Source of the DNA: Oscillospiraceae bacterium
Lineage (GTDB): Bacteria; Bacillota; Clostridia; Oscillospirales; Oscillospiraceae
Assembly: GCA_017542425.1 (NCBI GenBank)
Contig: JAFXXH010000073.1
Coordinates: 1 to 64,000 of the forward strand
Length of the DNA stretch: 64,000 nucleotides
Direction: 5' to 3'
The stretch's first letter is position 1. The number at the start of each line of letters is the position of its first letter. The position numbers and the translations under genes were made by a program. The notes beneath the pieces are model-generated. The model ran no database searches and was not told the DNA's origin. It saw only the letters and a list, made by a program, of their open reading frames with translations. Of this stretch, positions 15,775 through 19,084 are shown one piece after another.

Positions 15775-17037
15775 GGCGCGGTTTTTTGCCCGGCAGAGCG
15801 GCTTTGCCGCCACCAGCGACGCGGCCCGGTCCTGGTACAATCCGGCCATGTTCGAGGCGCACCCGGACATCGCGGGCACCACCGTCACCTTTGCCAACAT
15901 CATTCTGGACGACAACTTCCTCCATGAGGGCACAGACTTCTCGGACCAGCCGACGGCGCCTGCGGACACTTCCGCCAATCTGACCAGGGTCCAGGACGGC
16001 ATCGTCTCCCTGTACAATGATCCCGCCAATACATATCTGTGTACTCTGATTCTGGAGGACGGCTGCACGCTGCAGAACTTCGGCGGCATGAACGGCGTCA
16101 ACATCGAGGGCCACAGCGAGCTGATCATGAAAGACGGCAGCCTGATCACCAACGGAGGCACCGCCACCAGCGGCAGCGCGTCCGGCGTCTATCCGCTGAG
16201 CGGCGGCAAACTGACCATGGAGCCGGGCTCCCGCATCACCGGGATCAGCGGTTCCAATGCGGTTTTTGCCAACGTCGGCACGGCGTACATCAACGGCGAG
16301 ATCGACAACTGCTCCGGCACGAGTCCGCTCCGGGCGACCCATGCCACGTTCGAGATTGGCCCCGAAGGCAATGTCCACGACATCACCGGAAATACCGCTG
16401 CCTACTATGATATGGGCGCTTCCACCATCACCGTGCGGGGCAAGCTGACCGACTGCTCCGGCGTGGGTCTCTACCCCTCCTGCAACAGCGGGATCAGCAC
16501 GGTCTATGTGGAGGACAGCGCGGAGATCGCCCGCTGCGGCGGATACCAGGCTGGCCGCGCAGGTCACCGCGATCAATTCCTACAGCACGGTGCTGGCCAC
16601 CTGGTTTGCCCAGGTCCCGGAGAAGGCGCTGCACCTGACCGTGGCGGACCTGGCCGCGCAGACCGATCCCGTCTACGTCATCAGCTATCCCGTGGACGCC
16701 GCCGGCGCGATCGCCGACGACAGCGAGCCCGTCATCTACGCGGTGACGCAGGACACGACGGACGCCCGCAATCCCATCGACGTGCTGGCCTCCGCCGGCA
16801 GCGCCAACGGCAGAGCCTACGCCCTGTTTACCAGCCCCGATCCCATGTTCGCCGTCTCCTATGAGTCCCACGGCGGCTCTCTTGTGCCCCCCGAGGCCGT
16901 GCCGGAGAACGGCAAGGCCACAGAGCCCCCACGGGCCTGACGCTGCACTTCGACATGGTCGTCATCCTGGCGCTGGCGTGCTGGCGCTGGTGGGAGGCTT
17001 CTTCCTGAACCGCAAGCTGCGCAGCATCCGCAAGTAA
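15775..17037 (+). pseudogene. Decayed beta-helix surface protein with C-terminal membrane anchor
   Basis: Three reading frames must be joined to read one protein. The first part (to about 16545) has repeats of the right-handed beta-helix type (CTLQNFGGMNGVNIEGHSELIMKDGSLITNGGT; SGGKLTMEPGSRITGISGSN; STITVRGKLTDCSG). The second (about 16545-16935) continues QVTAINSYSTVLATWF to VSYESHGGSLVPPEAVPENG. One extra base in a C run near 16925 and another indel near 16977 separate it from an anchor (MVVILALA...VLALVGGFF) and a basic tail ending at 17037. No start codon or 5' end is visible. It lies just upstream of a sortase operon, so it is probably a former sortase substrate. Sequencing errors could mimic some frameshifts. 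Confidence 0.7.
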
Positions 17038-17062: not shown

Positions 17063-17635
17063 ATGAGAAAGGGACTGCTGTACTGTGTCACGGCAGGCTT
17101 CCTGATGCTGCTGCTGTGCCTGTCCGTCCGGGCGGAGGGGACGGCGCTGACCGTCTCCCTCCCCCTGCGCCAGCATGTGACCAACGGCTTGCCCGTCCGC
17201 GTGCTCTATACCCTGACGGCGGACACGCCCGACGCGCCGATGCCGGAGGGCAGCGCGAACGGCGTCTTCCGTATGCTGCTGCAAAACGAGCAGGACACAG
17301 CGCTCCCGCCCATCACCTACACCGCGCCGGGGGTCTGGACCTACACCCTGCGTGCGGAGACGACGGGGGGGACGCTGAGCCCGGAACGGCTGCGCATCCA
17401 GGTGGAGATCGTGGAGACGGCGGGCGAGCTGCTTCCCATGGTCGTGGCCCTGCTGGAAAACGGGGAGAAGACGGAGCTGCTCTTTCTCGTCACGCCGGAG
17501 CAGCCGCCTCCCCCGCCCGGCTACGGCACCGAAACGGGCGGGCCGGGCGTCGGCGGGACGACGGCGTGCGGCGTGGGACTCTGCCTCGTCGCTCTGGCGG
17601 CGCTGGCCCTGCGCGGACGGAAACAGAGGACTTGA
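17063..17635 (+). CDS. Small pilin-like (FctA/Spy0128-type) surface protein, tentative
   Basis: A 190-residue exported protein with a signal peptide (about residues 1-24, ending VRA), one beta-rich domain (about 25-140; LTVSLPLRQHVTNG ... FRMLLQNEQDTALPP ... GVWTYTLRAETTGG), a Pro/Gly-rich linker, a C-terminal membrane segment and a basic tail RGRKQRT. The pattern of PITYTAPGVWTYTL resembles the FctA domain of minor pilins. Only a non-canonical TETGG precedes the membrane segment; no LPxTG or NPxTN is evident. It lies directly upstream (1 nt) of a class B sortase gene, which supports a wall-anchoring role. Confidence 0.6.
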   Translation: MRKGLLYCVTAGFLMLLLCLSVRAEGTALTVSLPLRQHVTNGLPVRVLYTLTADTPDAPMPEGSANGVFRMLLQNEQDTALPPITYTAPGVWTYTLRAETTGGTLSPERLRIQVEIVETAGELLPMVVALLENGEKTELLFLVTPEQPPPPPGYGTETGGPGVGGTTACGVGLCLVALAALALRGRKQRT

Positions 17636-17636
17636 C

Positions 17637-18521
17637 ATGCGTGAGAACCGAACTGTGCGGGCGCGGACGCTCGCAAAATGGCTGTTACGGGAGACAGACC
17701 GCCTTCTGAGCGCGGTCTGTCTCATCGCGCTTCTGGCGGTGGGCGGCCTGGCCGCCTACATCGTCGTGGACACGGGCCGCCTGATGCGCGAGGCCGACAG
17801 CGCCCAGTACCAGGCGCTGCGCCCCGACGCGGCGGGCGGCGCGGCCTCCTTCGGGCTGCTGGTGGCCCGCAACCCGGAGGTGGTGGCCTGGCTGACGCTG
17901 GAGGACACCGGCGTGGACTACCCCGTGACCCAGGGAAAGAACAACCAGAAATACATCAACACCTCCGCCCTGGGGGAGTTCTCCCTGTCCGGGGCCATCT
18001 TCGCCGACGCCCGCAACGCGCCGGACTTCTCGGACACGCTGACCATCCTCTACGGGCACAACATGACCGGGGAGGCCATGTTCGGCAGCCTGGACCGCTA
18101 CGAGGACGGGGACTATTTCGCAGGCCATCTGCATGGGACAATGTACCACGGCGGGCAGTATGACGCGCTGGACATCTACCGCCCGGAGCTGGGGCAGGAG
18201 GAGCTGGGCGACTGGCTGGAGCTTGTCCGGGCGCGGGCCGTCCACTACCGGGAGGGCGTGGCCGAGGGCGGCCCGATTCTGCTGATGAGCACCTGCGCCG
18301 TGGGGGAGACCGAGGGCCGCCGCCTGGTGGCTGCGCGGATCCTGCCGGGCGCGGGCCGGCCCGCTGCGGAGGCGACGGGGGATGGGGGCCAGGCGGCGCG
18401 GCTGGTGCAGCGCCCGCAGCGCGCCGGGGGCGTCCCCTGGCTGCCCCTGGCGGCAGCCTTCCTGGCGCTCAGCGCGCTGAGCTGGCTGGCCTGGAGACGG
18501 AAAAGGAGGCGCGGAACATGA
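17637..18521 (+). CDS. srtB: Class B sortase
   Basis: Membrane-bound cysteine transpeptidase that joins surface proteins to the wall or to each other. It has 294 residues, with an N-terminal membrane segment at about 23-43. The catalytic set is visible: His141 in YGHNM, Cys220 in MSTCAV, and Arg228/229 in EGRRLVAARI. The YGHNMTGEAMFGSLDRY block and the length before it are class B features. Unusually, a second membrane segment lies at the C-terminus (about 268-286, LPLAAAFLALSALSWLAW), followed by a basic tail. It overlaps the signal peptidase gene by 4 nt (ATGA). Confidence 0.9.
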   Translation: MRENRTVRARTLAKWLLRETDRLLSAVCLIALLAVGGLAAYIVVDTGRLMREADSAQYQALRPDAAGGAASFGLLVARNPEVVAWLTLEDTGVDYPVTQGKNNQKYINTSALGEFSLSGAIFADARNAPDFSDTLTILYGHNMTGEAMFGSLDRYEDGDYFAGHLHGTMYHGGQYDALDIYRPELGQEELGDWLELVRARAVHYREGVAEGGPILLMSTCAVGETEGRRLVAARILPGAGRPAAEATGDGGQAARLVQRPQRAGGVPWLPLAAAFLALSALSWLAWRRKRRRGT

Positions 18522-19084
18522 ACGAGACGGAGCGGGAGCGGTTGCAGCCGGGCGGGGAGCGCCCGGAGACGGCGCGGCCGCCCGCCGGCGGCTCGCTGTT
18601 GGGCGATGCGCTGGCATTGCTGCTGAAGCTGGGCTGGATCGCCTTGGTGCTGGCGCTGGCGCTGGTGTTCGTGGTGGGGCTGTTCACCCAGCGGGGGGAC
18701 AGCATGGACCCGGCCTTTCAGGAGCGGGACATCGTGATCTTCTTCCGCCTGGACTGGAAGCCGGAGGCCGGGGAAGCCGTGGTCTTCCGGGACGCGGACG
18801 GCGCCCCACGGGTGGGACGGGCCGTGGCCGTGGCCGGGGACACGGTGGAGATCGACGAACTGGGCCTGAGAATCAACGGCTTCTATCAGGACGAGCCCTA
18901 TGTCACCGGCCAGACCCTCCGCTTCGAGGACGGGCCGGACTACCCCCTGCTGCTGGGGGAGGGGGAGGTCTTCGTGCTCTTCGACGTGCGTGAGGCCGGG
19001 GGCGACAGCCGCAGCCTCGGCCCGCTGGAGGCCGGACAGCTCCTGGGCCGGGTCATGCTTCTGCTGCGCCACCGGGGCTTTTGA
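18518..19084 (+). CDS. Signal peptidase I-like protein (S26) lacking the usual catalytic lysine
   Basis: A 188-residue protein with one membrane segment at about 34-56 and the S26 fold. The nucleophile region RGDSMDP is intact (Ser62). In the second box, which normally reads KR-x4-GD, the sequence is RVGRAVAVAGDTVEID, so Gly100 stands where the general-base lysine should be. A Ser/Lys mechanism therefore looks impossible. Pilus loci of streptococci encode SipA, an S26-like protein with replaced catalytic residues that helps pilus assembly; a similar chaperone role is plausible here because the gene overlaps a sortase gene. Confidence 0.82.
   Translation: MNETERERLQPGGERPETARPPAGGSLLGDALALLLKLGWIALVLALALVFVVGLFTQRGDSMDPAFQERDIVIFFRLDWKPEAGEAVVFRDADGAPRVGRAVAVAGDTVEIDELGLRINGFYQDEPYVTGQTLRFEDGPDYPLLLGEGEVFVLFDVREAGGDSRSLGPLEAGQLLGRVMLLLRHRGF

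What the first reader, a model, noticed from the sequence alone, without database searches (positions are those of the whole stretch)
18518..19084. Signal peptidase-like protein with Gly in place of the catalytic lysine, coupled to a sortase
Ser62 is kept in RGDSM but the lysine position before the R-x5-GD box is Gly100. In streptococcal pilus loci the S26-like SipA also lacks the dyad (Asp and Gly at these places) yet is needed for pilus assembly. This gene could be a clostridial, half-way inactivated counterpart.
Basis: partly seen in the sequence, partly recalled or inferred. Interest (0 to 1): 0.6.

Follow-up and report, generated by a model that had tools for sequence, protein, structure and literature searches.

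The report
Dyad-less signal-peptidase-like pilus assembly factor
A gut bacterium's gene that automatic annotation would call a protein-cutting signal peptidase is really a clostridial relative of the streptococcal helper protein SipA: it has lost the catalytic lysine, keeps a serine that varies freely among its relatives, and is encoded head-to-tail with the sortase enzyme that links pilus subunits.

Summary
Observation confirmed. ORF 18518-19084 (188 aa) has the signal peptidase I (S26) fold with Ser62 in RGDSM and Gly100 where the catalytic Lys belongs. Its start overlaps the stop of a class B sortase by 4 nt. The best PDB match by sequence and by fold is Streptococcus pyogenes SipA, ahead of every true signal peptidase.

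The SipA comparison holds, but "half-way inactivated" is not a special state. In 64 dyad-less relatives the Lys slot is almost never Lys, while the Ser slot is Asp, Ser, Ala, Gly, Asn, Arg or Met. Twenty keep Ser; the window's two nearest tree neighbours have Arg and Ala. With the active-site columns removed, the tree puts the loss of the dyad on one branch (moderate support), with at least 12 changes at the Ser slot. All 43 dyad-less genes with 3 kb of flank sit beside a class B sortase; 0 of 16 intact ones do. SipA D61A and D61S mutants still build pili (published), so Ser62 is probably idle.

Best reading: a non-catalytic membrane cofactor of a pilin-polymerising class B sortase. One relative carries both as a single ORF. 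The backbone pilin beside the window gene is broken; an intact second locus lies elsewhere in the genome.

The parts
18518..19084 (+). SipA-like S26-fold protein, 188 aa: N-terminal membrane helix (27-51), extracytoplasmic domain 52-188; Ser62 kept, catalytic Lys replaced by Gly100, SPase Gly272 position is Phe155
18504..18509 (+). Shine-Dalgarno AGGAGG of the SipA-like gene, inside the 3' end of the sortase gene
18518..18521 (+). ATGA overlap of SipA-like start and sortase stop (translational coupling inferred)
17637..18521 (+). class B sortase, 294 aa, catalytic His141, Cys220, Arg228 present, C-terminal membrane helix
   Evidence: TIGR03064 115 bits, PF04203 35.6 bits; residues
17063..17635 (+). 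190-aa secreted, membrane-anchored pilin-like protein (FctA/Spy0128-domain type: PMPEGS motif, C-terminal sorting-signal-like tail)
   Evidence: phmmer matches proteins of at least 20 sipA/sortase loci, E 1e-22 to 3e-5; relatives L079 and L107 carry PF12892 and L107 TIGR03786
15848..17034 (+). broken gene of a large surface protein or backbone pilin: coding in successive different frames, no intact start; the C-terminal piece resembles the sorting tail of the L090 backbone pilin

Best explanation
The protein is a SipA-type pilus assembly factor: a signal-peptidase fold that no longer cuts peptides. It sits in the membrane next to a class B pilin sortase encoded by the overlapping gene, and most likely acts as a non-catalytic scaffold or cofactor. 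It probably uses the inherited peptide cleft or the SipA-specific surface (Tyr/Phe76-Arg77, Arg184, Gly54) to present the pilin or its sorting signal to the sortase, so that subunits are polymerised. Signal peptides are cut by the separate intact signal peptidase I of the same genome. Shown here: fold, loss of the Lys, free variation at Ser62, constant company of a class B sortase, overlap with the sortase gene, one relative with both in one ORF. Inferred: absence of peptidase activity, physical contact with sortase and pilin, need for pilus assembly. Whether this particular copy is still in use is unsure, because the backbone pilin gene beside it is broken.
For: Best PDB match is SipA by sequence (4n31, 3.9e-16, against SpsB 1.7e-9) and by fold (Foldseek 6.3e-12; Z 21.2 against at most 15.7 for true SPases). 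Own genome has one canonical Ser/Lys SPase I (C23:2500-2967) and a second SipA-like gene (Ser->Arg, Lys->Ser) in an intact locus ordered sipA-pilin-srtB-LPXTG protein, the order published for S. pyogenes sipA-fctA-srtC-fctB (PMC4049620). Survey: 64 dyad-less S26 proteins, none with both Ser and Lys; Lys slot R 25, G 16, S 7, A 5, L 5, E 2, M 2, C 1, K 1; Ser slot D 22, S 20, A 7, G 6, N 5, R 3, M 1. With the active-site columns removed the dyad-less rows are one side of a branch; K/non-K needs 2 changes, S/non-S 12. 43 of 43 dyad-less genes with at least 3 kb of flank are beside a class B sortase, 0 of 16 Ser/Lys genes (Fisher p 9e-15). From the sortase side: of the 14 best matches to the window's sortase in 150 family genomes, all but G022 (rank 13) lie in sipA loci; 20 further class B sortase loci (G022 included) had no SipA-like gene and one SipW-type S26. 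Sortase and SipA-like domain form one 471-aa ORF in L105 (TIGR03064 140 bits plus TIGR02227 82 bits, continuous coding frame). SipA D61A, D61S and D61A/K98A keep pilus polymerisation and deletion abolishes it (PMC4049620).
Against: No contact between SipA and SrtC, FctA or peptides was found in published pulldowns with soluble domains, and a V99R cleft mutant still worked (PMC4049620), so the cleft-presentation step is weak. The fusion is seen in one metagenome-assembled contig only (L076 and L105 are the same contig). The branch separating dyad-less from Ser/Lys proteins has only moderate support (69/72; 67% of bootstrap trees). The window's backbone pilin is broken, and Phe155 is unique among the 64, so this copy may be drifting.
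Confidence: 0.75

Rival explanations
1. A decaying remnant: the locus once built a pilus, but the backbone pilin is broken and the SipA-like gene and sortase are on their way out, with Phe155 as an early sign.
For: Region 15848-17034 reads as a large surface protein in successive different frames. Phe155 is unique among 64 relatives. The locus is missing upstream of efp in 4 congeneric genomes with readable flank.
Against: Sortase, small pilin and SipA-like ORFs are intact with normal codon bias, and the SipA-like gene has a good ribosome site. The dyad loss itself is shared by the whole family, so it is not decay of this copy. Frame shifts could be assembly errors in GC-rich sequence.
Confidence: 0.15
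2. A signal-peptide decoy: the inactive cleft binds pilin signal peptides without cutting, holding precursors at the membrane until the sortase has acted; the intact SPase I cuts afterwards.
For: Fold and cleft framework of SPase I kept; Met63, Pro65, Arg101, Asp156, Asp163-Arg165 invariant; an intact SPase I present in the same genome.
Against: Published peptides of pilin signal-peptide C-regions did not bind recombinant SipA, and a cleft-blocking mutant still assembled pili (PMC4049620).
Confidence: 0.15
3. A still active peptidase in which Ser62 works with another base (Lys81, His185, substrate assistance).
For: Ser62 is kept; the only Lys or His outside the membrane helix are Lys81 and His185.
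Against: Ser varies freely in the family and in both nearest tree neighbours. Lys81 and His185 do not occupy the general-base position. The SPase Gly272 position is Phe and the Ser278 position Gly. SipA shows no activity, and its Asp/Lys pair is dispensable (PMC4049620).
Confidence: 0.04

Closest known systems
SipA/LepA of Streptococcus pyogenes FCT-2/3/4 pilus loci (PDB 4n31, 4k8w; PMC4049620)
   Same: S26 fold with one membrane helix, Lys replaced by Gly at the same position, encoded with a class B sortase and Spy0128-type pilins; closest solved structure by sequence and fold.
   Different: Ser instead of Asp at the nucleophile position; Phe155 where SipA has Asn140; gene lies directly behind the sortase (ATGA overlap) instead of before fctA; about 34% identity.
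Clostridium perfringens VR-10B pilus locus (PMC8088525)
   Different: The published locus is intact and proven to make pili; the active-site state of its signal peptidase was not examined here; the window locus has a broken backbone pilin.
Type I signal peptidase (SpsB, LepB; TIGR02227)
   Same: Fold, framework of the conserved boxes, Ser62; scores above the TIGR02227 cut-off.
   Different: No catalytic Lys (Gly100), SPase Gly272 position is Phe155, Ser278 position is Gly161; none with intact flanks of 3 kb lay beside a class B sortase in this survey.

Membership tests
SipA-type pilus assembly factor | signal peptidase I fold on a single N-terminal membrane helix | tested here: met
   PF10502 67 bits; AF2 model pLDDT 86, helix 27-51; Z 21.2 to 4n31
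SipA-type pilus assembly factor | no intact Ser-Lys dyad | tested here: met
   Gly100 at the Lys position; Ser62 kept
SipA-type pilus assembly factor | encoded with a class B sortase and pilins | tested here: met
   ATGA overlap with class B sortase; Spy0128-type small pilin upstream
SipA-type pilus assembly factor | same clade as S. pyogenes SipA, apart from true SPases | tested here: inconclusive
   Best trees place both among 64 dyad-less rows on one side of a branch, support 80 (quick) and 69/72 (careful), 67% of bootstrap trees
SipA-type pilus assembly factor | required for pilus polymerisation, no peptidase activity | not testable with these tools
   needs experiment
Type I signal peptidase | nucleophile serine in GxSM | tested here: met
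   Ser62 in RGDSM
Type I signal peptidase | catalytic lysine before R-x5-GD | tested here: not met
   Gly100
Type I signal peptidase | Gly in the GDNR box next to the lysine | tested here: not met
   Phe155
FCT/VR-10B-type class B sortase pilus locus | intact backbone pilin in the same operon | tested here: not met
   15848-17034 broken over several frames; the intact set is at C23 of the same genome
FCT/VR-10B-type class B sortase pilus locus | class B sortase with intact catalytic residues | tested here: met
   TIGR03064 115 bits (below the curated 153.75), PF04203 above cut-off, His141, Cys220, Arg228

The most novel reading that the evidence does not exclude
In clostridia the dyad-less signal-peptidase fold has become a built-in subunit of pilin-polymerising class B sortases: always encoded with the sortase, overlapping with it in one subclade, and fused into one polypeptide in one member. 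The two would work as a single two-domain membrane machine, which would answer the open question of what SipA does.
Probability: 0.3. Interest if true: 0.6.

Novelty: new member of a known kind. Interest (0 to 1): 0.36.

Why it matters
What SipA does in pilus assembly has been open since 2008. A family of more than 60 dyad-less proteins in Bacillota and Actinomycetota gives material to answer it: the Lys slot is lost throughout, the Ser slot is free to vary, a few surface residues are strictly kept, and the sortase is always next door or even fused. It also flags a naming trap, since TIGR02227 scores this protein well above cut-off and would label it 'signal peptidase I'. As a single gene the finding is modest: the system type, including a clostridial example, is known.

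Tried and rejected
Housekeeping signal peptidase: rejected, because the genome has its own Ser/Lys SPase I beside ylqF-like DNA and this protein lacks the Lys. SipW-type (Ser-His) peptidase: rejected, because the Lys position is Gly; the one SipW-type S26 met in the survey (L208) looks different. Sequencing error in the Gly codon: rejected, because relatives in separate assemblies have Gly, Arg, Ser or Ala at the same place. Decay of the dyad in this copy only: rejected, because the loss is shared by the whole family. A scan with the 11-row alignment A1 failed for want of conserved stretches, so A2 was used. Coordinates of the model are not given out, so the Lys81-Ser62 and His185-Ser62 distances could not be measured. 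A second structure job, on the sortase-SipA fusion, was not run because no inter-domain confidence or coordinates are returned. L160 (Anaerovorax) holds a further dyad-less S26 outside the SipA-like score range; with other rows under about 85 bits on the SipA-like profile, and a few partial ones, it was left out of the tree.

Full report
What is there. The ORF at 18518-19084 (+) encodes 188 residues. It starts inside the end of a class B sortase gene (ATGA overlap, 18518-18521) and has a ribosome site AGGAGG at 18504-18509. The sequence belongs to the S26 signal peptidase fold (PF10502 67 bits, TIGR02227 75 bits, both over their cut-offs), so automatic annotation would name it signal peptidase I.

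Closest solved structure. By sequence the best PDB entry is S. pyogenes SipA 4n31 (3.9e-16), followed by the second SipA entry 4k8w; staphylococcal SpsB follows at 1.7e-9. An AlphaFold2 model from 11 related sequences (pLDDT 86, one membrane helix 27-51) gives the same order: Foldseek 6.3e-12 for SipA, and VIA-align Z 21.2 for SipA against at most 15.7 for true signal peptidases. In the alignment Ser62 sits on SipA Asp48 and Gly100 on SipA Gly85.

State of the active site. [quoted passage not shown] roles from PMC4049620). Outside the membrane helix the protein has only one Lys (Lys81) and one His (His185). Distances could not be measured because model coordinates are not released.

Same genome. 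The genome (2.04 Mb, 100% complete) holds three S26 proteins. One is a canonical Ser/Lys signal peptidase (L003). Another (C23, L002/L011) has Arg at the Ser slot and Ser at the Lys slot and stands in an intact locus in the order sipA-like, 495-aa pilin, class B sortase, LPXTG protein. That is the published S. pyogenes order sipA-fctA-srtC-fctB (PMC4049620).

Survey. Searches of family genomes, of the class and of named genome contigs gave many relatives, and the profile separates two groups. After removing near-copies, 95 rows were compared: 64 without the dyad and 31 with Ser/Lys. In the dyad-less set the Lys slot is R 25, G 16, S 7, A 5, L 5, E 2, M 2, C 1, K 1, and the Ser slot is D 22, S 20, A 7, G 6, N 5, R 3, M 1; none has both. 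The single Lys (L118, Catenisphaera) comes with Met at the Ser slot. Both slots rank among the more variable columns in this set (90th and 99th of 140 by entropy) while being invariant in the Ser/Lys set. 'Ser kept, Lys lost' is therefore ordinary: 12 Ser/Arg, 6 Ser/Gly, 1 Ser/Leu, 1 Ser/Met.

Tree. With the four active-site columns removed, dyad-less and Ser/Lys proteins fall on two sides of one branch (SH-aLRT 80 in the quick tree, 69/72 in the careful tree, 67% of bootstrap trees), with S. pyogenes SipA on the dyad-less side. Lys against non-Lys needs 2 changes, Ser against non-Ser 12. The window's two nearest neighbours are L090 (Arg/Gly) and L092 (Ala/Gly). This fits one early loss of Lys and later drift at the Ser; the direction is inferred. 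A caution: rows were collected by likeness to dyad-less members, and support is moderate.

Company. All 43 dyad-less genes with at least 3 kb on both sides have a class B sortase in the fetched stretch; none of 16 Ser/Lys genes does (p 9e-15). The six dyad-less genes without a sortase lie on short contigs or close to a contig end. Searching from the sortase side, 13 of the 14 sortases most like the window's are in sipA loci, and 20 further class B sortase loci had no SipA-like gene, with one distant SipW-type S26. In the window's subclade (L074, L090, L092) the sortase lies directly upstream of, or overlaps, the SipA-like gene, and in L105 (roe deer rumen Oscillospiraceae, same contig as L076) both are one 471-aa ORF with unbroken coding bias and no ATG in the linker. 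Fusion of two proteins elsewhere is a classical hint of joint action, but this is one metagenome contig.

Marks of the family. Residues kept in the dyad-less set but not in Ser/Lys proteins include Gly54, Leu72 (Ile in the window), Tyr/Phe76-Arg77 and Arg184 (100% of 64), plus an Arg at 185 that is His in the window. These are candidates for the working surface.

The locus itself. The 190-aa protein at 17063-17635 is homologous to small proteins of at least 20 such loci (1e-22 to 3e-5), some of which carry the Spy0128/FctA domain PF12892 or TIGR03786. Upstream, 15848-17034 reads as a large surface protein with a sorting-type tail but in several successive frames and without a start, so the backbone pilin is broken or mis-assembled. 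In four congeneric genomes with readable flank, efp is conserved (89-93% identity) but no piece of this locus lies upstream of it, so the locus is accessory.

How it most likely works. Published work shows SipA is needed for polymerisation of class B sortase pili, cuts nothing, and works with Asp61 changed to Ala or Ser (PMC4049620). The family data here say the same for the clostridial branch: the catalytic positions drift and the sortase link is constant. I take it to be a membrane cofactor of the sortase that presents pilin or its sorting signal. The presenting step is inference; published pulldowns with soluble domains found no contact, which may reflect missing membrane parts, as those authors and the review PMC7900414 note.

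Novelty. SipA-like proteins are known, and a clostridial pilus operon with a 'signal peptidase' and class B sortase is known (VR-10B, PMC8088525). This is a new member of a known kind. The family-wide pattern and the natural fusion are the parts I did not find in the papers searched.

Noticed in passing
L105:4267-5682 (same contig as L076): Class B sortase and SipA-like domain in one 471-aa ORF, no ATG in the linker; possible natural fusion, one metagenome contig only.
   Followed up: partly
window 15848-17034: Remnant of a large surface protein or backbone pilin, coding in successive different frames; the end resembles a sorting tail.
   Followed up: partly
L107:2401-2976: Lacrimispora celerecrescens has an intact Ser/Lys signal peptidase about 3 kb upstream of a SipA-like gene on the same strand; a similar protein is L097.
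   Followed up: no
L091:6535-10725, L138:6478-8844, L142:6621-8849, L145:4463-6094: SipA-like gene followed by an unusually long sortase ORF: class B sortase with long repetitive or proline-rich extensions and a multi-helix C-terminus.
   Followed up: no
L104:5995-7234 and L108:5126-6376: Two SipA-like genes in tandem, with Ser/Met and Ala/Met at the two slots.
   Followed up: no
L160:4761-6453: Anaerovorax odorimutans: three overlapping S26 genes, one of them without the dyad (Ala/Gly) and outside the SipA-like score range.
   Followed up: no
L118:5950-6462: Catenisphaera SipA-like protein keeps the Lys but has Met at the Ser slot, the only one of 64.
   Followed up: no
L012 (G000:C67:1-8000): A third surface locus in the same genome with two Pfam-sortase proteins and LPXTG proteins, without a SipA-like gene in the stretch read.
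   Followed up: no
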